Of a stretch of DNA of 40,794 nt, positions 1,501 to 39,585 are shown piece after piece. The position numbers and the translations under genes are program-made. A model generated the notes under the pieces. The model was not told where the DNA came from. It made no database searches and saw only the letters and a program-made list of their open reading frames with translations. This stretch comes from Bacteroidaceae bacterium. GTDB taxonomy: Bacteria; Bacteroidota; Bacteroidia; Bacteroidales; Bacteroidaceae. Each line of letters starts with the position of its first letter. Positions within the stretch are counted from its first letter, which is position 1. The stretch lies in the NCBI GenBank assembly GCA_017961145.1, contig JAGCXU010000191.1, forward strand, positions 1 to 40,794. Direction: 5' to 3'.

Positions 1501-1587
1501 AAACGTGGCGTGTTAAGTTGACCAACTTAACGTGGGGCGTTGGCAAACATGGCGTGCTGCGTTTGCAAATTCGACGTATTTCGTGCC
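1501..1587. repeat. 22-bp-period array A (four units)
   Basis: Four units of 23, 21, 22 and 21 nt begin at 1501, 1524, 1545 and 1567. Each starts with AA and ends in TGACC, TTGGC, TTTGC or GTGCC. Cores contain GGCGTG. The 14-mer GGCGTGTTAAGTTG (1507-1520) recurs in reverse complement twice in array B (5771-5784 and 5793-5806), which shows that the arrays are related. The junction AAGTTGACCAACTT is near palindromic. It lies in a gene-free region about 225 nt upstream of the phosphoesterase. Confidence 0.7.
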
Positions 1588-1742
1588 TTTTTTAGCCCTT
1601 TTAAGGAGTGTGCAATAATAGCATAAAGAAAGGGAAACAGCATTTTGTGTGGCAATTTGTAAAGTTCATGATTTGTCGACATAAAGCATCATAGTTACCT
1701 ATATACCCTACCGAAGTATTGCAAATCCGAGAGAACGGACAA

Positions 1743-1774
1743 AAACTTTGAACTTCGGACTTTGAACTTTGAAC
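1743..1774. repeat. Heptamer-type repeat (ACTTTGA/AACTTTG)
   Basis: ACTTTGAACTT is repeated with a period of about 7 nt, partly interrupted by TCGG. Its last copies supply the -33 TTTG of the promoter of the phosphoesterase gene. It resembles the heptamer runs found upstream of other start codons in this window. Confidence 0.6.
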
Positions 1775-1791
1775 TATTTTGCGTATCTTTG
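1761..1791 (+). promoter_or_regulatory. Bacteroidetes promoter for the phosphoesterase gene
   Basis: TTTG at 1761-1764, 19 nt, then TATCTTTG at 1784-1791, matching the Bacteroidetes consensus TTTG-N19-21-TAnnTTTG. Transcription would begin near 1797-1800, leaving a leader of about 15 nt before the ATG at 1812. This supports that ATG over the upstream in-frame start at 1779, which lies within the promoter. Confidence 0.75.
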
Positions 1792-1811
1792 CAGCGCATT
1801 ATATAAATGTT

Positions 1812-3227
1812 ATGAACAGAAGAGAATTCCTGAGGCGCAGTACCGCCCTTGCCGGAGCAGCCTATTTGGGTTCGCCTGCCCTTGCTGAGAAGATTGCCAC
1901 TTTGGGCAATCCCAATCTCGTCATCGGCATTGTGAGCGACATTCATCTTCAAGGTTCAGATACCGCCGCGACGTTCATCCACACCCTCGAATACTTCCGA
2001 AGTCTGGAGGTGGACGGCGTCATCATAGCCGGCGATATGGCCGACAGAGGGCTCCTTCCTGAACTTCAGGTCGTGGCAGACGCTTGGTTCAAGGTCTTTC
2101 CGAAGAACAAAGGCTTGAAAGGCAAAAGGACGGAGCAACTCTTCATCTACGGCAACCACGATGTGGAGGCCTACAGTTGGGGCGGCATCATCAGTAGTGT
2201 CGGAGCAGAAACGGCTAAAGCGCAAGGCATCGGGCTTCAGCGCGAAAAGGCTTGGAAGCAGTGTTTCAAGGAACCATACCAGCCCATCTGGATGAAGACC
2301 ATCAAGGGCTATCACTTCATCGGAGCGCATTGGGAGAACCAGAACCACATCTCAGGACTTGCCGACTTCCTTCAAGAGCGCCATTCCGAGCTGACAGCCG
2401 ACGGGAAGCCATTCTTCTACATTCAACACCCACACCTTAAAGACACCTGCAACTGCGCTTGGGCTTGGGGCAGAGACGACGGCACGGTGACAAAGTTACT
2501 CAGCAATTACCCCAATGCCATCGCGTTTTCCGGGCACTCACACTCGCCTCTCGACGACGACAGAAACCTTTGGCAAGGCAGCTTCACAAGCATCGGAACG
2601 TCGTCGCTCAAGTACCTCTACCCCATGCCGGCACGTGAAAACACCTATCAAGACGATTGGTCGGCCAAACCGCCCTCGCAAATGCCGAAGATGCAGACAT
2701 CGGACGGCAGGCAAGGAATGGTGATGCGCGTCTATGATAATGCCATCACGTTCGAGAAGAGAGAGTTTGTCTATGACGAACCCATCGGCGAGGCTTGGTT
2801 CATGCCTTGGCCCATCTCCCGAGAAGAGCCACTTTCCTTCGAGAAACGCGCCAAGACGGCTCCCATCCCGCAGTTCCCCTCAGGTGCAAAAGCGACTGCA
2901 ACCGTCGGCTCCGGCAAAGACAGATATGGCACGGAGCAGAAGCAGGTCACGGTTCATTTCCCGACGATCCTGAAGAAGAATGCCGGCGTGCGTGCCTTCG
3001 ATTATGAGGTGCAAGTGGAGTACGACTGGCTCGACGTTCGCAACGTTACCACGACTAAGCGCGTCTTCTCGCCTAAGTGCTACCTCGGAGAGAACAAGGA
3101 AGAGGGCGAAGTCGTCTGCGTTTTTGGCGAAAGCGAACTGCCCAAGGACTTTGCTTACCGCTTTGCCGTTCGTCCCTGCAACTGCTTCGGAGGCAAAGGC
3201 AACGCTATCTATACGGATTGGAAATAA
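1812..3227 (+). CDS. Tat-exported calcineurin-like metallophosphoesterase
   Basis: 471 residues. The start at 1812 gives MNRREFLRR, a twin-arginine signal ending near SPALA, so the enzyme is probably folded in the cytoplasm with its metals and exported. The metallophosphoesterase motifs are present in order: SDIHLQ (D43, H45), GDMADRG (about 73), GNHD (about 114-117), a histidine motif QHPH and GHSHS (about 240). A C-terminal all-beta extension of roughly 150 residues (about 320-471) follows, as in purple-acid-phosphatase-like or UDP-sugar hydrolase-like exported enzymes of Bacteroidetes. The substrate is unknown. pyrE starts 31 nt downstream, so the genes may be co-transcribed, although a shared pathway is not evident. 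Confidence 0.88.
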   Translation: MNRREFLRRSTALAGAAYLGSPALAEKIATLGNPNLVIGIVSDIHLQGSDTAATFIHTLEYFRSLEVDGVIIAGDMADRGLLPELQVVADAWFKVFPKNKGLKGKRTEQLFIYGNHDVEAYSWGGIISSVGAETAKAQGIGLQREKAWKQCFKEPYQPIWMKTIKGYHFIGAHWENQNHISGLADFLQERHSELTADGKPFFYIQHPHLKDTCNCAWAWGRDDGTVTKLLSNYPNAIAFSGHSHSPLDDDRNLWQGSFTSIGTSSLKYLYPMPARENTYQDDWSAKPPSQMPKMQTSDGRQGMVMRVYDNAITFEKREFVYDEPIGEAWFMPWPISREEPLSFEKRAKTAPIPQFPSGAKATATVGSGKDRYGTEQKQVTVHFPTILKKNAGVRAFDYEVQVEYDWLDVRNVTTTKRVFSPKCYLGENKEEGEVVCVFGESELPKDFAYRFAVRPCNCFGGKGNAIYTDWK

Positions 3228-3258
3228 CTTATAGAAGTAACATAAACAAGATATCATA

Positions 3259-3891
3259 ATGAACAACGTTGAATCAATCTTTGCAGCAAAGCTGCTCGGC
3301 GTAAAAGCCATCAAGTTACAACCCAGCAATCCCTTCACTTGGGCAAGCGGATGGAAGAGTCCTTTCTATTGCGACAACCGCAAGACACTCTCCTTCCCCG
3401 ACCTGCGAACCTTTGTCAAGGTGGAGCTTACACGACTCGTCATGGAACAATTCCCTGAGGCAGAAGGCGTGGCAGGTGTTGCAACAGGAGCCATTGCTCA
3501 AGGTGCTTTGGTGGCCGACGCACTCTCTCTTCCCTTTGCATACGTTCGTAGTAAGCCAAAGGACCACGGCATGGAGAACCTCATCGAAGGCGAACTAAGG
3601 CCAGGCATGAAGGTCGTGGTGGTAGAGGACCTTATCAGCACAGGCGGCAGCAGTCTCAAAGCTGTCGAGGCTCTCAGGGCAGCAGGATGCGAAGTGGTGG
3701 GAATGGTAGCGTCTTACACTTATGGATTCCCTGTTGCAGAAGAAGCCTTCAAGGCAGCCAATGTCAAACTCCTCACACTCACTAACTACGAAGCCGTCGT
3801 GGCTGAAGCCCTCAAGACGGGTTACATCAAAGAGGAAGACGTTGCCACTCTCAACGAATGGCGCAAGGACCCGGCAAACTGGAACAAATAG
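3259..3891 (+). CDS. pyrE: Orotate phosphoribosyltransferase
   Basis: 210 residues, the usual length. It converts orotate and PRPP to orotidine 5'-monophosphate in de novo pyrimidine synthesis, in the cytoplasm. The PRPP-binding motif VVVVEDLISTGGSS is at about residues 118-131, and the N-terminal region contains FTWASGWKSPFYCDNRK, the orotate/PRPP loop typical of the family. YVRSKPKDHG is the flexible catalytic loop with its Lys residues. It is followed after 10 nt by an SRPBCC protein and then argH, all in the same direction, so an operon is likely. Confidence 0.96.
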   Translation: MNNVESIFAAKLLGVKAIKLQPSNPFTWASGWKSPFYCDNRKTLSFPDLRTFVKVELTRLVMEQFPEAEGVAGVATGAIAQGALVADALSLPFAYVRSKPKDHGMENLIEGELRPGMKVVVVEDLISTGGSSLKAVEALRAAGCEVVGMVASYTYGFPVAEEAFKAANVKLLTLTNYEAVVAEALKTGYIKEEDVATLNEWRKDPANWNK

Positions 3892-3901
3892 TAATTAAGA
3901 G

Positions 3902-4381
3902 ATGACTGAATACAAAAGCGAAGTAAAGAAGATATACGCTCCTATTGGACGCGTTTATGAACGTTTGGCAGACCTCAACAATCTGGCTGTCATACAACAA
4001 GGGCTTGACAATCCCGAAGCGATGGAGCGCATCAAGCAACAAGCTGGCGACAAGGTAACTCCTGAGCAACTGGAGCAAGTTGCAGAGAAGTTGCGTTCGT
4101 TGCAGTTCGACACCGACTCTGTTTCAGGACAGACACCTATTGGAACTGCCACTCTGCGCATCATAGAGCGCGAGCCCGACAAGACCATCAAGTTTGCTGC
4201 CGAAGGAATGCCTGTTGCTGCAAACATGTGGATTCAACTGCTTCCGCAAGGTGAGAACGAGTGTGCAATGCGTCTTACCGTCAAGGCAGACTTGAACTTT
4301 TTCATCCGCCAGATGGTGGGCAAGAAACTCGAGCAAGGCGTGGATGGCCTTGCACAAATGTTAGCAAGTTTACCATATTAA
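3902..4381 (+). CDS. SRPBCC (START-like) family protein
   Basis: 159 residues, no signal peptide or membrane segment. The N-terminal pattern YKSEVKKIYAPIGRVYERLADLNNL is the opening strand and helix of the START/polyketide-cyclase-like fold. Later strands such as GTATLRIIEREPDKTIKFAAEG and a C-terminal helix (VGKKLEQGVDGLAQMLASL) fit the helix-grip fold that closes over a hydrophobic cavity. The ligand is unknown. From memory, a similar gene often follows pyrE in Bacteroidales, which suggests conserved linkage rather than a known pathway role. Spacing is 10 nt after pyrE and 10 nt before argH. Confidence 0.82.
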   Translation: MTEYKSEVKKIYAPIGRVYERLADLNNLAVIQQGLDNPEAMERIKQQAGDKVTPEQLEQVAEKLRSLQFDTDSVSGQTPIGTATLRIIEREPDKTIKFAAEGMPVAANMWIQLLPQGENECAMRLTVKADLNFFIRQMVGKKLEQGVDGLAQMLASLPY

Positions 4382-4391
4382 TACTCTCACA

Positions 4392-5726
4392 ATGGCAAAG
4401 CTTTGGGACAAAGGATATGAGGTGACGGCGGAAATAGAGCGCTTCACCGTAGGCAAGGACCGCGAGATGGACATGTATTTGGCTGAGGCCGACGTACTTG
4501 GCTCGATGGCGCACATCACAATGCTCGAGAGCATCGGTCTCCTCGAGAGGGAAGAGCTCGACATCTTGCTTGCTGAATTGCGAACCATCCTCGCCGAGAT
4601 TCGCGGAGGGAAGTTCCTCATCGAGGAAGGCATCGAGGATGTTCACTCGCAAGTGGAGCTTATGTTGACTCGCCGACTTGGGGATGTGGGCAAGAAGATA
4701 CACTCAGGTCGCAGCCGCAACGACCAAGTACTTGTGGACTTGAAGTTGTTCATCCGCAAGCAATTGCGGCTTGTGGCTGAAGATGTGCGCAGTCTCTTCG
4801 ACGAACTACAGAAGCAAAGCGAGCGATACAAAGACATCTTGATGCCTGGCTACACACATCTGCAAGTGGCGATGCCCAGCAGTTTCGGACTTTGGTTAGG
4901 TGCTTACGCGGAAAGTCTCGTGGACGACCTCGTCTTCCTACAAGCTGCCTATCGCATCACAAACCGCAATCCGCTTGGATCTGCCGCAGGTTATGGCTCC
5001 TCATTCCCCTTGAACAGGACGATGACGACCGAGTTGCTAGGCTTCGATTCGCTCGATTATAATGTCGTCTATGCCCAGATGGGACGCGGCAAGACCGAGA
5101 GAGATGTTGCCTTTGCCCTTGCCGGTATAGCAGGCACAGTCAGCAAACTCGCCTTCGATGCCTGCCTCTACAACAGCCAGAACTTCGGTTTCATCAAGCT
5201 TCCAAAAGAGTGTACGACTGGATCGAGCATCATGCCTCACAAGAAGAACCCCGATGTCTTTGAGTTGACTCGCGCTAAATGTAACAAGCTTCAGGCTCTG
5301 CCTCAACAGGTTACGCTCATTATGAATAACCTGCCAAGCGGCTACTTCCGCGACCTGCAAATCATCAAGGAAGTCTTCCTGCCCGCTTTCGAGGAACTGA
5401 GAGATTGCCTGCAAATGGCAACTTACATCATCGCTCGGCTTGAGGTGAACGAGCACATCCTCGATGATACCCGCTATGACCTTATGTTCTCCGTAGAGGA
5501 AGTCAACCGTCTGGCAAGCGAGGGGATGCCTTTCCGCGATGCCTACAAGAAGGTTGGACTCGACATCGAGGCCGGCAAGTTTGTTCCCAAGAAGGAAGTT
5601 CACCACACTCACGAAGGCAGCATAGGCAACTTATGCACTAAAGAGATTGCTGCCCTCATGCAACAAGTCTGGGATGGTTTTAACTTCGAAAAGGCAGAGG
5701 AGGCGGAGAAGAAATTAGGAGGATAA
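4392..5726 (+). CDS. argH: Argininosuccinate lyase
   Basis: 444 residues. It splits argininosuccinate to arginine and fumarate, the last step of arginine synthesis, as a cytoplasmic tetramer. The fumarase/aspartase superfamily signature GSSIMPHKKNPD is at about residues 277-288, with the catalytic Ser in the flexible loop. Upstream conserved blocks include EDVHSQVE, HSGRSRNDQV and PGYTHLQVAMP, which form the shared active sites. Length is slightly below the roughly 460 of other ArgH proteins, the C-terminus being compact. The gene closes the pyrE operon, and a 22-bp array begins one base after its stop codon. Confidence 0.96.
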   Translation: MAKLWDKGYEVTAEIERFTVGKDREMDMYLAEADVLGSMAHITMLESIGLLEREELDILLAELRTILAEIRGGKFLIEEGIEDVHSQVELMLTRRLGDVGKKIHSGRSRNDQVLVDLKLFIRKQLRLVAEDVRSLFDELQKQSERYKDILMPGYTHLQVAMPSSFGLWLGAYAESLVDDLVFLQAAYRITNRNPLGSAAGYGSSFPLNRTMTTELLGFDSLDYNVVYAQMGRGKTERDVAFALAGIAGTVSKLAFDACLYNSQNFGFIKLPKECTTGSSIMPHKKNPDVFELTRAKCNKLQALPQQVTLIMNNLPSGYFRDLQIIKEVFLPAFEELRDCLQMATYIIARLEVNEHILDDTRYDLMFSVEEVNRLASEGMPFRDAYKKVGLDIEAGKFVPKKEVHHTHEGSIGNLCTKEIAALMQQVWDGFNFEKAEEAEKKLGG

Positions 5727-5814
5727 AAACATGGCACAGTTAAATCGCCAACATAACACGCCTAATTTGCCAACTTAACACGCCTAATTTGCCAACTTAA
5801 CACGCCTAATTTGG
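5727..5814. repeat. 22-bp-period array B (four units)
   Basis: The array begins directly after the argH stop. Units start at 5727 (23 nt), 5750, 5772 (22 nt each) and 5794 (21 nt). The last three are nearly identical, with core TAACACGCCTAATTTG; the first is diverged. In reverse complement the core reads GGCGTGTTAAGTTG as in array A. It occupies most of the gap between argH and the lipoprotein gene at 5838. Confidence 0.8.
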
Positions 5815-5837
5815 AGTTATAACAGCAAGAACATGAA

Positions 5838-6395
5838 ATGAAAAGACTTCTATATTCCATATTACTCATTTTCAACTGTTTGATGCTTGCCAGCTGTAAG
5901 GATGGCGAGGTGAATAACAAGTACTGCAACTTGCCTGCGAGGCTGAACATCGAAAATGTCTTGCAAGCCCCTGTACTCTTTACCTGCTGCGAAAGCATGG
6001 GCGAGTTCTGCTCCATCACAAGCGACGGACAGCGGTTTATCTTTACTGACGCTTCGAATCACACCTCGGCTATCAACATCGTCGGCTTGATTGGATATAG
6101 CGGTTATACACTCGGTTTAAGCGGTTTCATTGTAGGTCGTCTCACCATTCCTGAGATAGGCGAGAGTGACACTCGAGTCGTTTGCTACGACCGAGCCTGC
6201 AGTAATTGCTATCAAAACTACAACATCACAAAGCCTCTTCAGTTGCGCGCTGGCGGCTACGCCAAGTGCAACAGTTGCGGCCGTACCTACAATCTAAACG
6301 ACATTGGCAACATTTCCGACGGCCCCCAAGGTCGTCCCCTCTACCGCTACCGAGTCAGCTATCTCGGACAAACACTTCTCATCTATAACGGATAA
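5838..6395 (+). CDS. Lipoprotein with a Rieske-like C-terminal domain carrying four cysteines
   Basis: 185 residues with a lipobox LASC (lipidated C20), so it is anchored in an envelope membrane. The second half reads like a Rieske domain: VVCYDRACSNC, then AKCNSCGRTYNLNDIG, SDGPQGRPL, and YRYRVSYLGQTLLIY. This last stretch matches the usual Rieske ending of glycine-rich loop, Pro-rich RPL and final strands. The usual CxH/CxxH ligands are replaced by C121-x2-C124 and C144-x2-C147, so the site would bind zinc or a rubredoxin-like iron rather than a 2Fe-2S cluster. The N-terminal half also has C30, C50, C51 and C58. It stands five nt before the next gene. Function is unknown; the fold assignment is my inference from pattern. 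Confidence 0.65.
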   Translation: MKRLLYSILLIFNCLMLASCKDGEVNNKYCNLPARLNIENVLQAPVLFTCCESMGEFCSITSDGQRFIFTDASNHTSAINIVGLIGYSGYTLGLSGFIVGRLTIPEIGESDTRVVCYDRACSNCYQNYNITKPLQLRAGGYAKCNSCGRTYNLNDIGNISDGPQGRPLYRYRVSYLGQTLLIYNG

Positions 6396-6400
6396 CATTC

Positions 6401-6838
6401 ATGAAGAAAATCGTCCTACTATCTATCACTCTGTTTTTAATATTTCCTCTGGTAAAGGCAGAGGAACGCGTTTGGTGTCTGATTACTGATAATGGTGAAA
6501 GTGTGGCAATGAGCGAAGTACTCTGCCTGGCTGCTGCCGACGATGACTCCACTTTTGCTGTTGTACTGACGAACGGCTCGACCATTGGAGGTGTCCGTCG
6601 CGCCCACTTTAACTTAGAGATACCGACAGGCCTGACAAAGCCCAGCATTGTAGTTGCGAAAGACATCCTGCACCTTACGAATGCTCCTGCCGGCAGTACA
6701 ATCAGCATCTACACAATCGATGGGAAACTCATACAGCATACAAAATCTGACGAAGATATTGATGTCAGCTCACTTCCTGCCCACACATACTATATCATCA
6801 AATTAGGACAAACATCCTTCAAGTTCCGCAAGCCATGA
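6401..6838 (+). CDS. Small secreted protein with T9SS-like C-terminal domain
   Basis: 145 residues. A signal peptide (MKKIVLLSITLFLIFPLVKA) is followed by a short strand-rich region and a tail ISIYTIDGKLIQH...YYIIKLGQTSFKFRKP. That tail resembles the beta-sandwich sorting domain of type IX secretion cargo (usually VYDLxGK...GIYIVKV...K). It is similar in layout and C-terminus to the 162-residue protein at 31335, suggesting a small paralogous family. Its stop overlaps the next start as ATGA, so translation is probably coupled to the GH3 enzyme. The role is unknown; a surface adaptor or accessory binding protein is possible. Confidence 0.65.
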   Translation: MKKIVLLSITLFLIFPLVKAEERVWCLITDNGESVAMSEVLCLAAADDDSTFAVVLTNGSTIGGVRRAHFNLEIPTGLTKPSIVVAKDILHLTNAPAGSTISIYTIDGKLIQHTKSDEDIDVSSLPAHTYYIIKLGQTSFKFRKP

Positions 6839-11696: not shown

Positions 11697-11708
11697 GGTG
11701 AGACTTAA

Positions 11709-11796
11709 AACGTCACGTGTCACGTTGGCCATCGTCACGTGTGATGTTGGTCAACTTCACGTGTGATGTTTGCAATCATCACGTGTCGTGTTTGAG
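11709..11796. repeat. 22-bp-period array C (four units)
   Basis: Units start at 11709, 11731, 11753 and 11774 (22, 22, 21, 23 nt). Cores are TCACGTGTGATGTT or close variants, each holding the palindrome CACGTG. The array starts 12 nt after the stop of the repetitive secreted protein. The 15-mer AACTTCACGTGTGAT (11753-11767) recurs exactly in array E at 37784-37798, 26 kb away inside a gene. Confidence 0.8.
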
Positions 11797-21540: not shown

Positions 21541-21557
21541 CTTATGGTATCTCTTTC

Positions 21558-21645
21558 AACGTATAGTGTTATGATGGCAAACGTATAGTGCGACGATGGC
21601 AAACGTATAGTGTTACGATTGCGATCATCACGTTTGACGTTTGGC
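21558..21645. repeat. 22-bp-period array D (four units)
   Basis: Units start at 21558, 21579, 21601 and 21623 (21, 22, 22, 23 nt). The first three share AACGTATAGTG, and the fourth changes to ATCATCACGTTTGACGTTTG, close to the fourth unit of array C. It fills most of the gap between the batB-batC stop (21679) and batD start (21540) and would be transcribed within the operon. Confidence 0.8.
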
Positions 21646-21678
21646 AACGACACTGGGGTTGTTTTTTCTCATCCTATT

Positions 21679-27375: not shown

Positions 27376-27406
27376 ATTATGTTAAGTTTTATTTATATTC
27401 GAGGCA

Positions 27407-27438
27407 CAAAAATACTGCTTACTCTTATATCTGCCAAA
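27407..27438 (-). promoter_or_regulatory. Bacteroidetes promoter of the moxR-bat cluster
   Basis: On the minus strand TTTG (plus strand CAAA 27435-27438), 20 nt, then TATTTTTG (plus strand CAAAAATA 27407-27414). That spacing matches the Bacteroidetes consensus, and the predicted start near 27400 gives a leader of about 25 nt to the moxR ATG at 27375. Confidence 0.75.
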
Positions 27439-27504
27439 CATGAAATGATAAATAAAGTTATAACGATGTTTAATTCTGTTAAATCTGCTTCGTTTGTAAG
27501 AAAC

Positions 27505-30983: not shown

Positions 30984-31009
30984 ATCTTTTCATGCTTAGT
31001 ATTCGTGCG

Positions 31010-31078: not shown

Positions 31079-31103
31079 GGTTCAGCAGAGGAAATCTCCC
31101 AAA

Positions 31104-31276: not shown

Positions 31277-31284
31277 TACCTTTG
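31277..31284 (+). promoter_or_regulatory. Promoter -7 box of the secreted pair
   Basis: TACCTTTG followed by GCAGG; the start codon lies 50 nt downstream. A clear TTTG at -33 is missing; the upstream stretch has TTTTC at 31246-31250. Confidence 0.55.
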
Positions 31285-31334
31285 CAGGCAGAAAGTCACA
31301 ACCCATCATATTCATAATCAATAATTAAATCACA

Positions 31335-32557: not shown

Positions 32558-32559
32558 TC

Positions 32560-33642
32560 TCAGGCATTTACCTCCCATCCTTCAGTGTTTTCCGGGAGTA
32601 GTTGCTCTTTTCCGAACTGACTGGGCGTTTGCCCAGTCAGTTTTACAAATGCCCTGCGGAAAGTAGAAATCGAGCTGAAGCCGCTCTCGCTTGCCACATA
32701 TTCCAGTTTGAACTCTGGGTGTTCCTGCATCATGGGAATGCTCATTTTTTCTATGCGCAGCTGGTTCACATAGTCATAGAACGTTTGTCCAAGCACCGTG
32801 CCCAGATAGTTGCTCACATAGGTACGGTTGGTACCCATCGCTTTCGCGAGGTCGTTCAGCGTCAGGTTCTTGTTCAGATAGAGCCGTTCGCTCTCCATGA
32901 GTTGCTCCACACCACCGACGGGCAGGGGAGACTGTTGAACAGCTTTGCCAGCAGAAGCATCGTCGAAGCCATCGTTCCCCAAACCAGCATCAGCATCGGG
33001 CACGATAGGATGGAAGTTCCAGCTATAGTGCAACACGATGAGCCATAGCAGGATGACAGAAGAGTAGTAAATAATGTCGGTCAGTATATGGGCATAGAGC
33101 GAGGTGAAGAGCCAAGCCAGTTGGCTGACAATGACAAAGCCGAACACGGGACGCAACCACGACACATCGATGTTCTCGATGTTCGAGTAGTTGCTCCTTA
33201 CATAGTTCAGGTACTGCCTCATCTTGACGTAGCCGATAATCACAATAGTCCACGCATAGCACCACAAGAACGCCACATAGGCGATGATTACCCTTGGAAT
33301 GGGCCATATCAGATAGGCAAGTGTGAAAGCCGAAAATGGTATGGCCAAAAGTAATAGCCGCTTGAAGGTAGTCCATCCGGGCATAGTCACCTCGAAGACG
33401 AAGATGGTATAGGTGATGGCAGACCAGCCGTCGATGATGAGAATCCAGTTGAGTACATCTTCCCGATACATACTGGGGAAGGTGATGATGATGTCCTTTA
33501 CGTTCCATAAAGCCCAGATGGCCATGATGACACCTACCACCGTCTGAAAGCGTGAGCGTCTTTTATGCCAGAAGAGTATATGAAGAGCGAAGATGGAAAA
33601 AAACGCAGTAGAAACGCCTATCAGGAAAGCAGAGATATTCAT
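32560..33642 (-). CDS. Membrane-bound AraC-type regulator
   Basis: 360 residues from the ATG at 33642 (MNISAFLIGVSTAFF); an in-frame TTG extends to 33714 but gives no recognisable start. Six or seven transmembrane helices fill about 6-215 (GVSTAFFSIFALHILFW; LLLAIPFSAFTLAYLIW; VIIAYVAFLWCYAWTIVII). The AraC HTH domain lies at the end (LNDLAKAMGTNRTYVSNYLGT, and SGFSSISTFRRAFVKLTGQTPSQF). By family knowledge a membrane sensor with an intracellular DNA-binding tail. It is adjacent and convergent to the secreted pair, a candidate target. Confidence 0.88.
   Translation of the reverse strand: MNISAFLIGVSTAFFSIFALHILFWHKRRSRFQTVVGVIMAIWALWNVKDIIITFPSMYREDVLNWILIIDGWSAITYTIFVFEVTMPGWTTFKRLLLLAIPFSAFTLAYLIWPIPRVIIAYVAFLWCYAWTIVIIGYVKMRQYLNYVRSNYSNIENIDVSWLRPVFGFVIVSQLAWLFTSLYAHILTDIIYYSSVILLWLIVLHYSWNFHPIVPDADAGLGNDGFDDASAGKAVQQSPLPVGGVEQLMESERLYLNKNLTLNDLAKAMGTNRTYVSNYLGTVLGQTFYDYVNQLRIEKMSIPMMQEHPEFKLEYVASESGFSSISTFRRAFVKLTGQTPSQFGKEQLLPENTEGWEVNA
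32615..32642 (+). terminator. Perfect 12-bp hairpin ending the secreted pair
   Basis: AACTGACTGGGC, loop GTTT, GCCCAGTCAGTT, then TTA on the plus strand. It lies 58 nt past the stop of the FISUMP gene but inside the AraC coding region on the other strand (LTGQTPSQF). The T-run is short (four T including the stem end). Confidence 0.5.
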
Positions 33643-33736
33643 GTTGTCTATCAACTCTATTTCATTTACTGTTATTTGTAAGGCAGCCGAATATTGAACC
33701 ATCAAATACCACAAGGAATAGTACTGTCAATGAATG

Positions 33737-33802
33737 CAAAGGTAACAAAAAAAGCCCAATTCATCGCAAATAATACCGATTTTTTAGTATTAATTAAGGA
33801 AT
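33737..33802 (-). promoter_or_regulatory. Promoter element of the AraC gene
   Basis: Minus-strand TACCTTTG (plus 33737-33744), with TTTG 22 nt further up (plus CAAA 33767-33770), the same spacing as in the ftsY element. About 80% identical over its length to 31010-31078. Confidence 0.65.
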
Positions 33803-33817
33803 AGGAAACAACAAAAA

Positions 33818-33842
33818 ACTCCTTCGTTTTGCAACGAAGGAG
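33818..33842 (-). terminator. Rho-independent terminator of the M56 gene
   Basis: Stem AGCTCCTTCGTT/AACGAAGGAG, followed on the minus strand by TTTTTTG. It lies 45 nt after the stop of the M56 gene. Confidence 0.75.
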
Positions 33843-33886
33843 CTGTATGGCGCCAAATTATTAACTTCTAAAAACTATAAGCATTG

Positions 33887-35800
33887 TTATTGGGGGCTAT
33901 TCCCTTCCTGACGAGCGCTGAGCCGGAACTGGATGGGCAGGTTGAAGCGGCTGCGGACAATATTACCGTCCTTATCCTTGGCAGGTTCCCACTTCGGCAT
34001 TGCCTTCAAGACACGCACTCCTTCTTCGTAGAGCAGTTCTCCTAAGTCTTGTCCCACTTTGGGCTCCTCTGTGCTCTCAGGATTCTTCTCCTTGTAGGAA
34101 GTCACATCAATCTCCGAGAGTTCCATGCCAGGTCCGCGCAGCTTCTTGATTTCCGTGATACTGCCGTCCTTCTCAACAACGAAGCTTATGATGACGCGAC
34201 CTTGCACACCAAATGATTGACAGAGCTTGGGATAGCGGATATTCGTTGCCAAGAACTTGTAGAGTTCTCCTTCACCGCCTGGATACTTGGCATTCACAGC
34301 AGGAACGTTAAAGATGCTGTCCCCTATGTTGAAGGCTTCCTTGCCATCGACCATTATTTTGGTAACGCTCTTGCCGTTGACTGTTATATTGCCTTCGTCG
34401 TCCATCTTTGCTCCGGGCAGCTTCTTTACGAGATCCTTGAGAACAGGATCGTAAGTTCCTGTCTCCTTGTTATAGACAACATTCTGACTCTCAGGTTCCT
34501 TCGTTTCCTTCTTGGTAGTAATTTCGATGACACCATTGGAACCTTTGCTACCCCACTTGGCGGTGGCGGCTTCCTTCTGAAGCACGGTAATGCTCTCGAC
34601 ATCCTCAACATTGATATTAAGCAGTTTAGTGAGCTGCTCTTCGTGCATTCTTTTGAGGTTGATGTCCTTCATATCCTCAGGAATTTCAAAGATTTTGCCG
34701 TTGAGGACAATCAGAGGACGTTCATCTGTGTCCTGCTTCTTCACATCCTCCGAAGTGACCTCCCCAGTGGGACGCAGCGCTTTATCATTTTGAGCAGCAG
34801 GCGTCTTTTCCTGCTCAAAAGCTTGCAAGTTAGCGGAATTCTCCGTACCTTTGCCCTCGAGTTTGGATACTGTCTCCTCAATTGGAGCGACGAACTTAGG
34901 CGTAGCGAAGGCCGAAAGCGCCAACGCAGCGACTGGGATGACATAGAGCACCTTGCTCCGCATCCACGGATTTGACTTGATTCTTTTCATCATAGTGATA
35001 CGTTTTTTAGTTAAACTATGGTTAAAGCTGTTGGCGAAAGCGTAGGAACCGGAGCCAACGGCTTTTCTTATGAGCAATAATTGATAGCCTTGAGCCGAGA
35101 CGCCCTGCTCGAGGACATAACTGTCGGCCTCGTATTCGTGCACATCACGCAGGCTGATGCCCAGCACGTAACAGAGTGGATTCCACCACTGAAGCATCTG
35201 CACGAGGGTGAGCAGCACGACATCCCACGAATGGCGGCTGCGGATGTGACCCATCTCGTGCAAGATAATCTCCCGGCCTGCCTCGTCGTAGTCCTTCTTG
35301 TTGATGACGATGTTGCGCATCCAACTGAACGGCGCGACATCACCCGAATGGCAATAGATGTGGACATCCTGCTCGTCGCCCTTCCAAAGCACGCCCTGCT
35401 TCAAGCCAAGCTGCAGGCGGCCAATCTGCCAGAGCCTCGTCGCGAGCAGCATCGCCATACCTATTATATATATAAAGGTCAAGAGGTGAAAGAGTGAAAA
35501 AGACCCCTCCAAACCTCCCCTTAAAGGGGAGGCAACGACTTGCACCTCAGGCAGAACGTGAACGGGAATGCCCAACTCGAGCATTTGCAACTGTGCCGCT
35601 TGTACGACTGGCTGGCGGTCGAGCGACATCCAAGGTATGTTGCAGAGCGGCAAGACGAGCGACAGCAACAGGATACCCAGCAGCACCATGCGATTGAAGC
35701 GGAAGAAACTCTCTCGCCTGAGCATCAACATGTAGGGCAAATACAGCAGAGTCAACACGATAGCCGACTTGATGGAGTATAAAAGTAAAGCGGACATCAT
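33887..35800 (-). CDS. M56 (BlaR1-like) peptidase with plug-like and TonB C-terminal domain
   Basis: 637 residues. The M56 part has membrane helices near 9-24, 36-52, 105-122 and 285-303, and the zinc site HEMGH at about 181, with a downstream Glu in VHEYEADSYVLE. After a Lys/Glu-rich linker a short stretch ESITVLQKEAATAKWGSKGSNGVIEITTK resembles the TonB-receptor plug box. The final about 110 residues (ATNIRYPKLCQSFGVQGRVIISFVVEKDGSI) form a TonB C-terminal domain. It is downstream of the BlaI-type repressor with a gap of about 160 nt. By family knowledge the peptidase activates a repressor cleavage cascade; the plug and TonB parts suggest outer-membrane signalling. Confidence 0.88.
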   Translation of the reverse strand: MMSALLLYSIKSAIVLTLLYLPYMLMLRRESFFRFNRMVLLGILLLSLVLPLCNIPWMSLDRQPVVQAAQLQMLELGIPVHVLPEVQVVASPLRGGLEGSFSLFHLLTFIYIIGMAMLLATRLWQIGRLQLGLKQGVLWKGDEQDVHIYCHSGDVAPFSWMRNIVINKKDYDEAGREIILHEMGHIRSRHSWDVVLLTLVQMLQWWNPLCYVLGISLRDVHEYEADSYVLEQGVSAQGYQLLLIRKAVGSGSYAFANSFNHSLTKKRITMMKRIKSNPWMRSKVLYVIPVAALALSAFATPKFVAPIEETVSKLEGKGTENSANLQAFEQEKTPAAQNDKALRPTGEVTSEDVKKQDTDERPLIVLNGKIFEIPEDMKDINLKRMHEEQLTKLLNINVEDVESITVLQKEAATAKWGSKGSNGVIEITTKKETKEPESQNVVYNKETGTYDPVLKDLVKKLPGAKMDDEGNITVNGKSVTKIMVDGKEAFNIGDSIFNVPAVNAKYPGGEGELYKFLATNIRYPKLCQSFGVQGRVIISFVVEKDGSITEIKKLRGPGMELSEIDVTSYKEKNPESTEEPKVGQDLGELLYEEGVRVLKAMPKWEPAKDKDGNIVRSRFNLPIQFRLSARQEGNSPQ

Positions 35801-35805
35801 AGCAT

Positions 35806-35838
35806 TTACAATTTGACGATTTACAATTTACGATTTAA
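35806..35838. repeat. Heptamer-type repeat before the M56 gene
   Basis: ACAATTT and ACGATTT alternate for about 33 nt (plus strand). On the minus strand it ends about five nt before the M56 ATG at 35800. Confidence 0.65.
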
Positions 35839-35866
35839 CGTCTGAAGACATGGATTGCTTTTTCTT

Positions 35867-35948
35867 ACCACGAATTGCACGAATTTCACGAATTGGCTAT
35901 GCCTTTGATATCGACGAATAATTCGAGCAATTCGTGTAATTCGTGGTT
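35867..35948. repeat. CACGAATT inverted repeat
   Basis: The left arm ACCACGAATTGCACGAATTT (35867-35886) continues with CACGAATTGG. The right arm (35913-35948) is its imperfect reverse complement, ending AATTCGTGGTTT. The two could fold into a hairpin in the gap between the BlaI gene and M56. Similar strings are common in Bacteroidetes intergenic regions from memory. Confidence 0.7.
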
Positions 35949-35960
35949 TAATAACATATA

Positions 35961-36350
35961 TCATCTGTTGTTTGGATAATCAACGAGTTTGAGCAGTTCA
36001 TTTACTTCATCGGGCGTGAGGTTTTCCTCCATGACGAAGTAGTTGAGCATCGACTTGACGCTGCCGCCGAAGAAGTTCTTCTTGACCTCTTGCATCGTGC
36101 GTCGTGTGTATTCTGCCCGCGTCACGAGCGGCACATAACGGTGCGTCTTGCCCTGACCCTCCACTTTGTGGAAGTCGAGATAGCCTTTCTCGCAGAGCAC
36201 TTTCAGGTAGGTCGCGACGGTTGTATAGGCAGGTTTCGGCTCTTCGTAGCGTTCGATGACGTCCCACGCACAAGCCGCTCCGTCGATGTCCCACAGGATG
36301 TTCATCACTTCGAACTCAACCTTTGTCAATGTGTTGTCGTTGCGTTTCAT
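35961..36350 (-). CDS. BlaI/MecI/CopY-family repressor
   Basis: 129 residues. Winged-helix DNA-binding part (LTKVEFEVMNILWDIDGAACAWDVIE; PAYTTVATYLKVLCEKGYLDFHKVEGQGKTHRYVPLVTR) and a C-terminal dimerisation helix with FFGGSVKSMLNYFVMEENLTPDEVNELLKLV. It binds as a dimer and is usually cleaved when the cognate M56 sensor is activated. The peptidase gene follows. Upstream there are a repeat of CCAAACGA type and 14-nt direct repeats (36475-36509). Confidence 0.92.
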   Translation of the reverse strand: MKRNDNTLTKVEFEVMNILWDIDGAACAWDVIERYEEPKPAYTTVATYLKVLCEKGYLDFHKVEGQGKTHRYVPLVTRAEYTRRTMQEVKKNFFGGSVKSMLNYFVMEENLTPDEVNELLKLVDYPNNR

Positions 36351-36391
36351 GTTTGGTCGTTTGGGGGGTTAGTCGTTTGGTCGTTTGGGTT
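36351..36391. repeat. 8-nt-period repeat before the BlaI gene
   Basis: GTTTGGTC-type units (GTTTGGTCGTTTGGGG and GTTTGGTCGTTTGGGT) are found directly upstream of the BlaI-type ATG (36350). Confidence 0.6.
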
Positions 36392-36474
36392 TCCGAAGGC
36401 AAAGTAAGGGAGTTTTCTCGAATCTCGCAATGTTTAGATATCGGAAACTTTCGAAATTGGGCGTTTTTTAACGT

Positions 36475-36509
36475 TTATTCTTAGTAATTGAACAGTTATT
36501 CGTAGTAAT
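36475..36509. repeat. 14-nt direct repeats spaced 21 nt
   Basis: TTATTCTTAGTAAT at 36475-36488 and TTATTCGTAGTAAT at 36496-36509; one mismatch and two helical turns apart. It lies about 125 nt upstream of the BlaI-type start and could be a regulatory site. Confidence 0.5.
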
Positions 36510-36524
36510 AGGACGAGACAAAAA

Positions 36525-36555
36525 GTCCCCGACTGGCTTCTCAGCTGGTCGAGGA
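36525..36555 (-). terminator. Terminator of the sigma-factor operon
   Basis: GTCCCCGACTGG and CCAGCTGGTCGAGGAC-type arms pair, and on the minus strand a run of five T follows (GGGGACTTTTTGTC). It is downstream of the secreted protein at 36615. Confidence 0.7.
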
Positions 36556-36614
36556 CATGAAAAGAAAAATACCTTAAAACTTAATGAGAAAATACTTGTT
36601 GCTTGTGTAGTTGC

Positions 36615-37487
36615 TTACTTTTTATGCATTTGCATTAGCAGTTCGCGTGCCTTCTCGAAGTACTTGCGGTCTGCCGCATTCTTGGCTACTTCAATTAAAG
36701 CGTCAATGTCGGCCATTACCTTCTCCCACTTCTCTGTAGAGTCGGGAAGCTGGAAGGCACCAAACTTGACGCCCAGCCTGCAGAGGTCATAGATGCCGAT
36801 TGCTGTAACTTCTGTCGTGTTGTTTCTCCAGTAAAAGTCCTTCAAGCTATTGAAGTTGCGGATGAAAGCGTCGTCGTTCGTCATCTCATTGAAGAACGGA
36901 TTTATTGGGTTGGAAGGGATGCCTGTGCCTATAATGGTAGTCGTCTGTGCCGAAGGTATCTTAGCGTACGTCACGATGTATCGGGCGAAGACATTTCCCT
37001 TGTGGTCTTCCTTCCATTCGAGGGCATAGGCGTAGCGATGCGTCTTGGTGGTGTCGCCAGCATCAAGTATGTTGACGTTGATGTAGTTGCCATATTGTTC
37101 GCCAATAGTGACGTAGCGACTTGGGTCATCACCTATCATCAGGTTGCGCTTGCCTTCATTCTGCGGGTTTCCCGTCGATAAAGTGTTGACACCGTAACAG
37201 TTCGGATTGTAGGTTCCGTTTGCCTCGAATGCTTTAATCATTTCGTCGAGCATGGAACGTTGTTTCTTTGGAAGCGTGAAGGTCATGATGTCGCAGCGCC
37301 ACTTCAAGGGCGTTCCTTCCTTCGTTATGTCGCGTTCCTGACCAAGACTCTTGCTGACTTCCACCTTGTTGTCAATGGTTTGAGAGATGAGACTACTCAT
37401 CCAGGACTCTATGTCCTGCGCTATGACATTTTGTGCGGAAGCGTTCAAACTGACGAGCATCAAGCTCGCAAGGATTAAGTTCTTCAT
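36615..37487 (-). CDS. Secreted protein of unknown function
   Basis: 290 residues with signal peptide ending ASA/QN. No family recognised. The body is a mixture of alpha and beta (LKWRCDIMTFTLPKKQRSMLDEMIKAFEANG; YALEWKEDHKGNVFARYIVTYAKIPS; final helix ADRKYFEKARELLMQMHKK). It lies 20 nt after the anti-sigma gene in the same direction, so it may be an envelope protein controlled by the sigma factor. Followed by a strong terminator. Confidence 0.7.
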   Translation of the reverse strand: MKNLILASLMLVSLNASAQNVIAQDIESWMSSLISQTIDNKVEVSKSLGQERDITKEGTPLKWRCDIMTFTLPKKQRSMLDEMIKAFEANGTYNPNCYGVNTLSTGNPQNEGKRNLMIGDDPSRYVTIGEQYGNYINVNILDAGDTTKTHRYAYALEWKEDHKGNVFARYIVTYAKIPSAQTTTIIGTGIPSNPINPFFNEMTNDDAFIRNFNSLKDFYWRNNTTEVTAIGIYDLCRLGVKFGAFQLPDSTEKWEKVMADIDALIEVAKNAADRKYFEKARELLMQMHKK

Positions 37488-37507
37488 AATTATAACGTAT
37501 TGAATGT

Positions 37508-38161
37508 TTAGAATGAAATGATTTGGTTTGATGTCTCGAGTTCTCTGCCCTCAAGCGTGGCGATGTATGCGCGCAGAGGTTCTGTCTGCTCATGCATCTC
37601 GTAGGCAGTTTGCAAGACTTCCTCGGCAAGGAAGATATCGACGAGCGCCTGCTTTTCGGGTGAGATGACGGGCTCTTCTTCAGGTTGCTCCTCTGCCCTT
37701 TCCGAGGGAGGTGGAGCGACTTCTTGTCCTGTCTCTAAAGACGCAAGCAGAGGTTCCTCAGAACTTAATTCGTCAAGTTGCTCAACTTCACGTGTGATCT
37801 TTGCCAATTTCACGTGTGGTTTTGTCCGAGTTGACACGTGATGTTTTTCAACCTCCTGTGTCAGGCTCTTCGACTCGTCATTAGTCGGCTCTGGTTGAAG
37901 CGTTTGTTGCTTCTCTGGTATTTCAGTATTTTGAGTCACTACAGGCAGTTCTTTCGGCTTGTTCACAAAGAGGAAGAAGCCCACGAGCAAAGTTGCTGCG
38001 ATGCCACTCACCCAGAGAGCCACCGTGCGTTGCTTGTTTCGCCGACGGACTTCTACAGCCTTCAGCACCCTTGCGGCAAAGTCTTCCGAGAGTGGCGGCA
38101 CGTTGGCTGCCTTTCGTTCAAATGCTGCCTTTAGCAGTTTATCCTGTTCCTTTTCCTTCAT
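37508..38161 (-). CDS. Anti-sigma-like membrane protein
   Basis: 217 residues from the ATG at 38161, which follows a good AAAAGGAT ribosome site; an upstream TTG in the repeat is unlikely. The N-terminus (MKEKEQDKLLKAAFERKAA) resembles a short sigma-binding tail, a TM helix lies at 47-66, and the rest is a Glu/Pro-rich periplasmic stretch with a C-terminal helix (KQALVDIFLAEEVLQTAYEMHEQ). It follows the sigma gene after 21 nt, fitting a membrane anti-sigma factor. Residues 105-134 are encoded by 22-bp array E. No known anti-sigma domain is clear, so the role is inferred from context. Confidence 0.7.
   Translation of the reverse strand: MKEKEQDKLLKAAFERKAANVPPLSEDFAARVLKAVEVRRRNKQRTVALWVSGIAATLLVGFFLFVNKPKELPVVTQNTEIPEKQQTLQPEPTNDESKSLTQEVEKHHVSTRTKPHVKLAKITREVEQLDELSSEEPLLASLETGQEVAPPPSERAEEQPEEEPVISPEKQALVDIFLAEEVLQTAYEMHEQTEPLRAYIATLEGRELETSNQIISF
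37762..37849. repeat. 22-bp-period array E inside the anti-sigma gene
   Basis: Four 22-nt units start at 37762, 37784, 37806 and 37828, with cores TCACGTGTGATC, TCACGTGTGGTT and GACACGTGATGT. The first unit is diverged. 22 is not a multiple of 3, so the encoded peptide (about residues 105-134) shows no repeat. No stop codon interrupts the frame. Confidence 0.8.
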
Positions 38162-38162
38162 A

Positions 38163-38198
38163 TCCTTTTCAATTTTCAATCTTCAATCTTCAATTTTC
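38163..38198. repeat. Heptamer-type repeat at the sigma/anti-sigma junction
   Basis: AATTTTC and AATCTTC alternate with 7-nt period. On the minus strand it covers the last codons and stop of the sigma factor (KIED-stop) and ends next to the ribosome site of the anti-sigma gene. Confidence 0.65.
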
Positions 38199-38737
38199 AA
38201 CAACTTCCTCAGTTTCTTCCTGATTCTTTGCAGCCTGCTGGCGAGTGGACCTGCTGCCACATCCATCACCTCGGCTATTTCTGCGAGCGAGCGTTCCTCG
38301 TAATAATGCAGATGCAGAAGCGTCCTTTCCTCTGGGCGCAGGCTGTCGATGGCTTTGTCGAGGAGCATGAGACGTTCGTTTCTTGCTGCCGTCTCCTCCT
38401 CTTCCTGCGCCCACGATGCCCCGTCTGGCGGCCTGTAGCGCTCCTCGTCGAGCGGCATAGAGGCCAGTCCTCGGCTGCGAAGATGATTCAAAGCGGTGTT
38501 GTAGGCGATGCGGCTGAGCCATGTCGTGAACGAAGCTCGCTCGGGGTCGAAGTCGGAGAGATGCGTGAAGGCACGCACAAAGACGTCCTGCGTCAACTCC
38601 TCCACATCGCGAACATCGCTAACCATCTGTGCCACAAGCAGCTGAACCTGACGTCCGTACCTGTCCATCAGGTACTTATATCCGTCGGCTTGCCCGCGCT
38701 GGGCAGCGAGTATCATCTGCTTTTCCTGTTCAGCCAT
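38183..38737 (-). CDS. ECF sigma factor (sigma-70 family)
   Basis: 184 residues from the ATG at 38737 (MAEQEKQM); an in-frame GTG at 38764 is possible but has no strong ribosome site. Region 2 (LMDRYGRQVQLLVAQMVSDVRDVEELTQDVFVRAFTHL) and region 4 (LRPEERTLLHLHYYEERSLAEIAEVMDVAAGPLASRLQRIRKKL) are clear. It redirects RNA polymerase to its own regulon. Next gene encodes the probable anti-sigma. The target promoter is not seen. Confidence 0.92.
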   Translation of the reverse strand: MAEQEKQMILAAQRGQADGYKYLMDRYGRQVQLLVAQMVSDVRDVEELTQDVFVRAFTHLSDFDPERASFTTWLSRIAYNTALNHLRSRGLASMPLDEERYRPPDGASWAQEEEETAARNERLMLLDKAIDSLRPEERTLLHLHYYEERSLAEIAEVMDVAAGPLASRLQRIRKKLRKLLKIED

Positions 38738-38807
38738 AGTTTGTCTTGCCACCCTTATATACACAAGAACAGCAGAAATATGTCGCTAAAAAGAGAAAAA
38801 TTTTTGC

Positions 38808-39434
38808 CTATGCGAGGCGATAACGCGTTTGAGCGCCCTTGCCCTCGCGAACCAGACGACCCTCTCGAACGAGCCGACCCAAGAGTTTTGTCACGCGGTT
38901 TCTGGTCAAGGTCTGTTCGAAAGCGACGGACACATCCTTATGAGTAATGTAGGTTTTGCTGGCAAAGAGTTCGGCGAGGCGTGCCTCGACCTCCGACTCC
39001 TCTGCATTGAACTTCCATCCATACGGCACCTGATCGACCTCGAAGGCACGCACTTCGGCCAGCAATTCGCTGTCAGGACGGAACTGCAGACCTTCCACTC
39101 GGACATCTTTCCCATGATAATTGCCGTCCTTCACCTCGATGTCACCCTTCAAGGAAAGGCGGAAAGTGCCGATTCCGGGCAGCGTGACGGCGTTCCCCTT
39201 CTCCAGTTCATGCACCATCACCCTTTGCAAAGTGCTCAGAGCCGCCATCAGTTCGGCCTTGGGCAACACGGAAGGCAACCTGCCGCTGCTGCTCTGGAAC
39301 TCGATGGCATCCGTCGTCTGCGGGCTTTCCAACAAGACGCGAAGGCTCTCCAAATCAGTCGTTTCACTCACATTCTCCTGCTGCCCTTCGGTGGGAAGAA
39401 CACCGCGCCGGGCAATTGAAAATCTTATAGCCAT
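38808..39434 (-). CDS. HU-like DNA-binding protein with winged-helix tail
   Basis: 208 residues. The first part looks like an HU domain of the large Bacteroidetes type (AIRFSIARRGVL...KAELMAALSTLQRVMVHELEKGNAVTLPGIGTFRLSLKG...VRVEGLQFRPDSEL). The C-terminal 70 residues form a winged helix (KTYITHKDVSVAFEQTLTRNRVTKLLGRLVREGRLVREG). The combination suggests a DNA-bound regulator or structural protein. It has its own promoter (39460-39491) and lies downstream of a repeat array. Third HU-type protein in the window. Confidence 0.82.
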   Translation of the reverse strand: MAIRFSIARRGVLPTEGQQENVSETTDLESLRVLLESPQTTDAIEFQSSSGRLPSVLPKAELMAALSTLQRVMVHELEKGNAVTLPGIGTFRLSLKGDIEVKDGNYHGKDVRVEGLQFRPDSELLAEVRAFEVDQVPYGWKFNAEESEVEARLAELFASKTYITHKDVSVAFEQTLTRNRVTKLLGRLVREGRLVREGKGAQTRYRLA

Positions 39435-39459
39435 AATCGTATCGTTTTGATTTACCCCA

Positions 39460-39491
39460 CAAAATTAGCAAAAATCCCCCATTTCACCAAG
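39460..39491 (-). promoter_or_regulatory. Promoter of the HU-winged-helix gene
   Basis: Minus-strand TAATTTTG (plus CAAAATTA 39460-39467) with a TTG (plus CAAG 39488-39491) 20 nt upstream. Fits the consensus, the -33 is weak (CTTG). Confidence 0.6.
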
Positions 39492-39519
39492 AGTTTTACT
39501 CGAAAAAAACAGTTAAGTT

Positions 39520-39585
39520 GTTTGCTCCTTCATGTAGAAGCAATTACTCCTTCATGTAGGAGCAATCACTCTTACATGAAGGAGC
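39520..39585. repeat. 22-bp-period array F (three units)
   Basis: Three 22-nt units at 39520, 39542 and 39564, with cores CTCCTTCATGTAGAAGC, CTCCTTCATGTAGGAGC and CTCTTACATGAAGGAGC. The third is near the reverse complement of the first two, so the array can fold. Same period and AA start as A-E, but a different core. Confidence 0.7.

What the first reader, a model, noticed from the sequence alone, without database searches (positions are those of the whole stretch)
1501..39585. Six scattered arrays of 22-bp units, mostly four units (88 bp) each
Arrays at 1501-1587, 5727-5814, 11709-11796, 21558-21645, 37762-37849 and 39520-39585 share a period of 21-23 nt, units beginning with AA and ending near TTTGCC, TTGGC or GC. 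By my boundaries five are 87-88 bp, i.e. four units, and one is 66 bp. Cores differ between arrays but recur across them (AACTTCACGTGTGAT in C and E, GGCGTGTTAAGTTG in A and B, ATCATCACGT in C and D). Two helical turns per unit and near-constant array size suggest a DNA-binding scaffold (protein in phase on one face) or a mobile miniature element. I know no described family of this form.
Basis: partly seen in the sequence, partly recalled or inferred. Interest (0 to 1): 0.88.

Follow-up and report, generated by a model that had tools for sequence, protein, structure and literature searches.

The report
Fixed-pitch 22-bp palindrome arrays
The genome of a Prevotella-like bacterium, like those of its relatives, carries short runs of 22-base mirror-image repeats mostly just after genes; the spacing and mirror symmetry are kept while the letters change almost freely, which none of the repeat families compared here explains.

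Summary
Lag-22 self-similarity marks exactly the six reported places, other lags almost none. In 440 kb sampled from this 2.6-Mb genome I count 49 non-coding lag-22 arrays, against at most one at any other lag from 14 to 45 except 44. Arrays have mostly 3-5 units. Of 212 neighbouring unit spacings 210 are 22 and 2 are 44, although neighbouring units differ at 6.8 of 22 bases. In the wider sample 115 arrays fall into 39 sequence families with the same pitch and, on average, above-chance dyad symmetry. Several orthologous gaps keep an array while its sequence turns over, partly with paired arm changes; array B is in only 2 of 11. Arrays sit in 20/37 convergent, 27/246 tandem and 2/32 divergent gene pairs. 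Wobble pairs on sense RNA are not favoured. Tests for REP, BrickBuilt and Rfam membership were not met. Best reading: a DNA-level element selected for pitch and two-fold symmetry rather than sequence, probably an architectural site at gene ends. Partner unknown; the array class is well supported, its function is inferred.

The parts
1500..1587 (+). Array A: 4 units of 22 bp (ACGTGT family, degenerate), between a thioredoxin-like and a calcineurin-like phosphoesterase gene
   Evidence: lag 22, 29/44; units at 1500, 1522, 1544; fourth unit read by eye; flanking genes
5726..5813 (-). Array B: 4 units of 22 bp directly after the stop of a Lyase_1 family gene (PurB-like by my reading)
   Evidence: lag 22, 43/44; TRF 97% matches over 5747-5813; the orthologous gap in RUG12173 (L180) holds an unrelated 22-bp array; gene family
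11707..11794 (+). Array C: 4 units between a + strand gene and a convergent UvrD-like helicase gene
   Evidence: lag 22, 35/44; units; G036, the only other genome comparable here, has a different array in this gap
21556..21665 (+). Array D: 5 units between a BatB/BatC-like (VWA and TPR) gene and a BatD gene; the gene-proximal end unit carries CCCCAG
   Evidence: lag 22, 37/44; five units; an array in 8 of 10 genomes by threshold, a weaker one in G035, an empty gap in G013
37760..37847 (.). Array E: 4 degenerate units inside the coding frame 37508-38161 (-)
   Evidence: lag 22, 30/44; at the same codons G012 has a different 22-bp array (40/44), G036 a similar one (29/44), G005 none at lag 22
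39522..39587 (-). Array F: 3 units of an unrelated family (TTGCTCCTTCATGTAGGAGCAA type); the whole array is one inverted repeat
   Evidence: lag 22, 38/44; inverted repeat 39522-39587; G012, the only other genome comparable here, has a 3-unit array with both arms changed in a gap of the same length, 224 bp

Best explanation
The arrays are a class of phase-locked dyad elements. Each is a run of 11-base half-units alternately inverted, so that the DNA has an approximate two-fold axis about every 11 bp and a direct repeat every 22 bp. What is kept is pitch and, on average, dyad symmetry at the DNA level; the bases themselves drift, and whole units are gained or lost. This much is shown by sequence. 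Inferred: the array is an architectural DNA site in gene 3' flanks, placed where it does not disturb promoters. It would be loaded by a protein, or adopt a structure, that reads symmetry and spacing rather than bases, for example to manage torsion or chromatin at the ends of transcription units. Proteins of the HU/HU-HIG kind, numerous in this genus, are one conceivable partner, on no direct evidence.
For: Pitch: 210 of 212 neighbouring spacings are 22, 2 are 44, none 21 or 23 (G000 and G008 stretches), against 1147 base differences over 169 neighbouring pairs (G000). In the array D gap, G000 against G008 shows 43 substitutions and no gap, while the array-free gap IGR 21 of the same pair has 56 substitutions and gaps of 11, 1 and 9. 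Same pitch in 39 families among 115 arrays. Dyads: mean 14.1 of 22 positions palindromic against 11.3 (sd 0.26) with letters shuffled, over 39 families. Arrays fold better than versions in which the bases of every unit were permuted alike, mean z -1.75 (62 arrays) and -1.92 (53 arrays). Arms covary at eight D orthologs: 6.16 of 10 pairs against 5.55, reached by 4 of 2000 shuffles. DNA rather than sense RNA: G-U 59 against A-C 84 in 33 tandem arrays of G000/G008, 75 against 96 in 33 others. Placement: convergent 20/37, tandem 27/246, divergent 2/32, Fisher p 1.9e-5 for convergent against divergent; in 27 tandem gaps the median is 25 nt after the upstream stop and 101 nt before the next start.
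Against: No binding partner, expression or phenotype data. Within G000 alone the two arms of a unit do not pair better than column make-up gives (5.56 of 10 against 5.52) and pair slightly worse than arms taken from other units of the same array (5.68). 26 of the 39 family representatives do not individually reach p 0.05 for palindromicity, among them the printed member of the main family (p 0.37). Missing indels are not unique to arrays: in the array-free gap IGR 16 three pairs show 11 to 30 substitutions and no gap, and the F gap of 224 bp is gap-free outside its 66-bp array too. An array inside a reading frame (E) and arrays missing from most orthologs (B) do not look essential. HU-HIG matches do not track the pattern counts, by eye. 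Arrays are only weakly oriented relative to genes (73 against 40 units in tandem gaps, 47 against 42 in convergent ones).
Confidence: 0.4

Rival explanations
1. RNA element in 3' untranslated regions: the transcript of the array folds into tandem hairpins or one long hairpin that protects or processes mRNA ends, as proposed for REP elements.
For: Location after stop codons; real unit order folds better than shuffled order, mean z -0.71 (se 0.16, 38 arrays); some arrays are one long inverted repeat.
Against: G-U pairs are not preferred over A-C on the sense strand; sense and antisense strands fold equally well (p 0.62); exact pitch is not needed for tandem hairpins (inference); no Rfam family in the window at gathering scores.
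Confidence: 0.2
2. Unselected minisatellites: hairpin-prone DNA amplified by slippage and kept alike by template switching between units; location reflects tolerance only.
For: Gain and loss of units and of whole arrays, likeness within arrays, unrelated families, presence in a tolerant coding linker; one other array-free gap also lacks small indels in some pairs.
Against: A free process should give many periods, but non-coding DNA of the sample gives 22 (115 arrays) and little else; no +/-1 spacing among 212; one gap keeps its array in 8 of 10 genomes.
Confidence: 0.22
3. Mobile miniature element (MITE or REPIN-like) spread by a transposase in trans.
For: Hundreds of related unit matches in G000 and patchy counts between species; site-specific presence or absence; slight excess of 2-bp repeats at the edges, 26 of 49 against 369 of 980.
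Against: No conserved sequence outside the arrays and no clear excess of longer target duplications; no Y1 transposase match in G000, G008, G005, G012 or G036 (genomes 84-89% complete); sequence-unrelated arrays at the same site.
Confidence: 0.1
4. Operator arrays of a sequence-specific regulator, with half-site AAACGTNAC in this clade.
For: One dominant consensus in G000.
Against: Located after genes and nearly absent between divergent genes; other genomes of the genus hold several unrelated families each (five representatives from G016 stretches alone).
Confidence: 0.08

Closest known systems
REP / BIME elements (repetitive extragenic palindromes) with RAYT transposases
   Same: Short palindromes in many copies, outside genes, often grouped; counted between convergent, divergent and unidirectional genes (start of abstract, passages and a figure legend of PMC3733652)
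   Different: No GTAG or CGTC tag in the outer five bases of 223 units, no Y1 transposase match in G000, contiguous units of fixed pitch, sequence not kept
BrickBuilt MITE of Porphyromonas gingivalis
   Same: Tandem imperfect 23-nt units between genes in a Bacteroidales species; loci differ between strains by whole units (passages of PMC4596501)
   Different: Unit consensus absent from the window; BrickBuilt has leader, tail and terminal inverted repeats like those of IS5-family elements, and up to 22.8 units
Iterons, and 22-bp transposase end sites (recalled, from no call)
   Same: Tandem sites of about 22 bp on one face of the DNA
   Different: Those are sequence-specific and few per genome; here there are many arrays after ordinary genes
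CRISPR arrays (recalled, from no call)
   Same: Tandem short repeats
   Different: No spacers: units are contiguous

Membership tests
REP/BIME | GTAG or CGTC tag at one end of the palindrome | tested here: not met
   0 of 223 G000 units have either tag in the outer 5 bases; anywhere in the unit GTAG occurs in 6 and CGTC in 59; at 98 array edges GTAG/CTAC occurs in 2 and CGTC/GACG in 9
REP/BIME | RAYT (Y1) transposase in the genome | tested here: not met
   No PF01797 match in G000; 13 of 41 genus genomes match at E<=0.001, among the nine with the highest unit-pattern counts only G027 and G035. The genomes are incomplete
REP/BIME | Extragenic, mostly 3' of genes, avoiding divergent gaps (feature recalled) | tested here: met
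   49 of 53 G000 arrays lie between genes, 3 inside called genes, 1 at a stretch edge; 2 of 32 divergent pairs occupied
BrickBuilt MITE | 23-nt unit consensus AGAYCATARTATCCTCTCRTRTG | tested here: not met
   0 matches with up to 3 mismatches in the window
BrickBuilt MITE | Leader, tail and terminal inverted repeats | tested here: not met
   98 flanks of 60 bases, no column above 0.37 bit
Rfam families | Match at the gathering score | tested here: not met
   0 matches in the window
MITE | Target site duplication | tested here: inconclusive
   Direct repeats at the edges of 3 bp or more: 10 of 49 arrays against 144 of 980 random pairings; of 2 bp or more: 26 of 49 against 369 of 980
Protein-binding scaffold | A protein bound in phase | not testable with these tools
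   no binding data

The most novel reading that the evidence does not exclude
A new class of bacterial DNA element recognised by geometry: arrays of two-fold axes every 11 bp, of free sequence, that a structure-reading architectural protein loads at the 3' ends of genes. Its pitch would be lineage-specific: 22 bp in Prevotella- and Bacteroides-like lineages, perhaps 23 bp in another family (three lag-23 repeats in G047).
Probability: 0.28. Interest if true: 0.87.

Novelty: new variant of a known kind. Interest (0 to 1): 0.72.

Why it matters
Repeat families are normally recognised by sequence. Here the spacing is the conserved trait, so alignment-based annotation may miss many copies. A complete isolate genome, Prevotella communis E15-14, carries such arrays, so the question of what enforces an exact 22-bp pitch can be tested directly.

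Tried and rejected
RNA hairpin signature: G-U pairs are not preferred and the two strands fold equally. Unit-level covariation within G000: none beyond column make-up, apart from one position pair, 8-15. RAYT or IS200-type transposase as maker: no match in G000 and in seven of the nine genomes with the highest pattern counts. Arrays as replacements for intrinsic terminators: 9 of 20 array-bearing and 6 of 11 array-free convergent gaps carry a terminator-like site by a home-made scan, so no clear difference. Conserved sequence outside arrays: none above 0.37 bit. HU-HIG: more matches in the genus than in 11 of 12 genomes of other families, but not tracking arrays. Literature: searches for 22-bp, tandem or palindromic repeats in Prevotella, Bacteroides or Bacteroidales gave nothing relevant in the held open-licence library; search 76 for HU-HIG gave nothing.

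Limits: genes were called by a home-made script. The 400 kb of G000 came from contigs listed with pattern hits, so density may be overestimated. The named-genome sample is all from around one gene. The 39 families depend on a single-linkage cut of 16/22. Searches use different array definitions (53 and 49 arrays in G000). One search printed only pairs above 62% identity. In one search the shuffles used at most three members per family, and the D test left out G035 and G013 and anchored G027 differently.
Full report
WHAT IS THERE. The six arrays are real and stand alone: at 28 of 44 matches, lag 22 gives six clusters at the reported places, and lags 21 and 30 give one each. They belong to a genome-wide set. 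In the window's own genome (G000, 2.61 Mb in 191 contigs, 86% complete) the loose unit CAANNNNNACGTGTNNNGTTTG has 550 matches with up to two mismatches, against 65 for the reversed control. A position model from 440 kb gives the consensus CAAAC(G/T)T(A/C)ACGTGT(G/T)ACGTTTG. It finds 53 arrays of three or more units: 13 of three, 16 of four, 20 of five, 3 of six and 1 of seven. The unit is an imperfect palindrome and so is the junction of two units, so an array is a chain of 11-base half-units alternately inverted.

PITCH. Neighbouring model hits in the G000 and G008 stretches lie 22 bases apart in 210 of 212 cases and 44 in 2; no 21 or 23 occurs. Yet neighbouring units differ at a mean of 6.79 of 22 bases, 1147 differences over 169 pairs in G000. 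In the gap that holds array D, the 19 pairs of species above 62% identity show 12 to 49 substitutions; gaps are absent or 22 bp, with a single base in comparisons with G036 (where 22 becomes 21) and a further 103-base gap in the one with G035. The array-free gap IGR 21 usually has two or three gaps of assorted sizes. Against this, the array-free gap IGR 16 has three pairs with 11 to 30 substitutions and no gap, and the F gap (85 substitutions, 224 bp) is gap-free also outside its 66-bp array. The non-coding part of all stretches, with simple sequence removed and at least 30 of 44 matches, gives lag-22 arrays: 49 in G000, 13 in G008, 39 in other genomes of the genus, 14 in named Bacteroidota loci around one gene, and 0 in 256 kb of other families. 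Other lags from 14 to 45 reach at most 3, except 44 (the double) and 42 (7, named loci only). A further 233 kb of other families and 68 kb of genome G047 gave no lag-22 array; G047 gave three lag-23 repeats, at least one clearly palindromic.

SEQUENCE IS FREE. The 115 arrays fall into 39 families at 16 of 22 identity: one of 72, five of two and 33 singletons; unrelated background is 10, with a 99th percentile of 13. Over the 39 families the mean number of palindromic positions is 14.1 of 22, against 11.3 (sd 0.26, maximum 12.2 of 300) for shuffled letters. Individually, 13 of the 39 representatives reach p 0.05 or less and 26 do not; the printed member of the main family is among the 26 (12 positions, p 0.37), while its 72 members average 14.6.

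ORTHOLOGOUS SITES. The gap of array D (BatB/C-like to BatD) holds a lag-22 array in 8 of 10 genomes, a weaker one in G035, and is empty (38 bp) in G013. It is exactly 138 bp in five of them although the units differ. Across eight of these arrays the arms pair better than with right arms permuted among genomes: 6.16 against 5.55 of 10, 4 of 2000 shuffles, with 23 compensatory cells and 115 non-pairing cells of 320. At array F, G000 and G012 (the only two comparable) have the same gap length and three units each; TTG-CTCC...GGAG-CAA has become TTG-CACA...TGTG-CAA. At array C, G000 and G036 (the only two comparable) have different arrays. At array B only G000 and RUG12173 (L180) of 11 have arrays, with unrelated sequences. 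Array A had no comparable genome. Array E lies in a coding linker; G012 has a different 22-bp array at the same codons (40/44), G036 a similar one (29/44), and G005 none at lag 22. Since 22 is not a multiple of three, the pitch there is unlikely to be selected through a protein repeat.

PLACE. Of the 53 G000 arrays, 49 lie between two called genes, 3 inside genes and 1 at a stretch edge. Of adjacent gene pairs, 20 of 37 convergent, 27 of 246 tandem and 2 of 32 divergent hold an array. Fisher p is 1.9e-5 for convergent against divergent. For gaps of 60 bp or more without the array, p is 0.019 for tandem against divergent. In the 27 tandem gaps the median distance is 25 nt to the upstream stop and 101 nt to the next start. 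Array edges favour AAAAC outside-in (first base A in 36 of 98 edges) while internal units start with C (277 of 328).

DNA OR RNA. If sense RNA hairpins were selected, G-U pairs should outnumber A-C. They do not: 55 against 72; 59 against 84 and 75 against 96 in two sets of 33 arrays, the first overlapping. Strands fold equally well (p 0.62). Higher-order symmetry is present: real unit order folds better than shuffled order (mean z -0.71, se 0.16, 38 arrays; -0.77, 49 arrays extended by a unit on each side), and several arrays are one long inverted repeat. Within G000, however, the two arms of a unit pair no better than column make-up gives, and slightly worse than arms from other units of the array. 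I read this as selection on DNA symmetry of the array as a whole; an RNA role in some arrays is not excluded.

WHO HAS IT. Nearest named relatives by the lyase (PurB-like) protein are rumen assemblies (RGIG6885 94%, RUG12173 92%). Among named loci, 34 Prevotella/Bacteroides-like ones (484 kb) hold 14 arrays and 46 others (659 kb) hold one (my grouping by record title, with one joint gene model, counts 14 in all). The complete genome of Prevotella communis E15-14 carries units around CACTCGAGTG (21 exact pattern matches, control 0) and GAGTTAACTC; an unbiased 60 kb of it holds one array. This argues against an assembly artefact and gives an isolate for tests.

WHAT IT IS NOT. No REP tag at unit ends and no Y1 transposase match in G000; no BrickBuilt unit in the window and no leader or tail; no Rfam match in the window. 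For BrickBuilt (PMC4596501) and the REP survey (PMC3733652) I saw search listings, starts of abstracts and found passages only; for PMC5771137 the listing and found passages.

MECHANISM. Shown: pitch, average dyad symmetry, sequence turnover, whole-unit change, 3' placement. Inferred: selection acts on geometry of DNA at gene ends, through a structure-reading protein or a DNA structure. Not shown: any partner or effect. Unselected slippage is the main rival on origin; the single period and the missing spacing changes speak against it.

Noticed in passing
window 38811-39434 (-): HU-HIG family DNA-binding gene next to array F. The model has 2-19 matches in each of 19 genomes of the genus, against 1-4 in 11 of 12 genomes of other families and 12 in G047; it also rings in E. 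coli, so ordinary HU relatives are counted in.
   Followed up: partly
L285:2376-2482, L286:283-349, L287:2987-3055 (genome G047, another family): Three lag-23 repeats, at least the first clearly palindromic (CACGCAGCGTG type); perhaps a lineage with 23-bp pitch, the unit length of BrickBuilt.
   Followed up: partly
relatives' gene gaps IGR 4, 16, 18: Other dispersed insertions: AATTCATAATTCATAATTC-type runs and CCCCCTTTAGGGGGAG-type palindromes; the IGR 4 stretch is the same in G020 and L180.
   Followed up: no
gap IGR 20 (window 27376-27504) in G024 and G012: A long outer stem (AAAACATCTACTGCC...GGCAGTAGATGTTTT) encloses a short 22-bp repeat; the two species' gaps differ by one 22-base and one single-base gap.
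   Followed up: no
G000 array ends: End units often carry CTGCAG, CCCCAG or CTAG in place of the ACGT core of inner units (by eye).
   Followed up: partly
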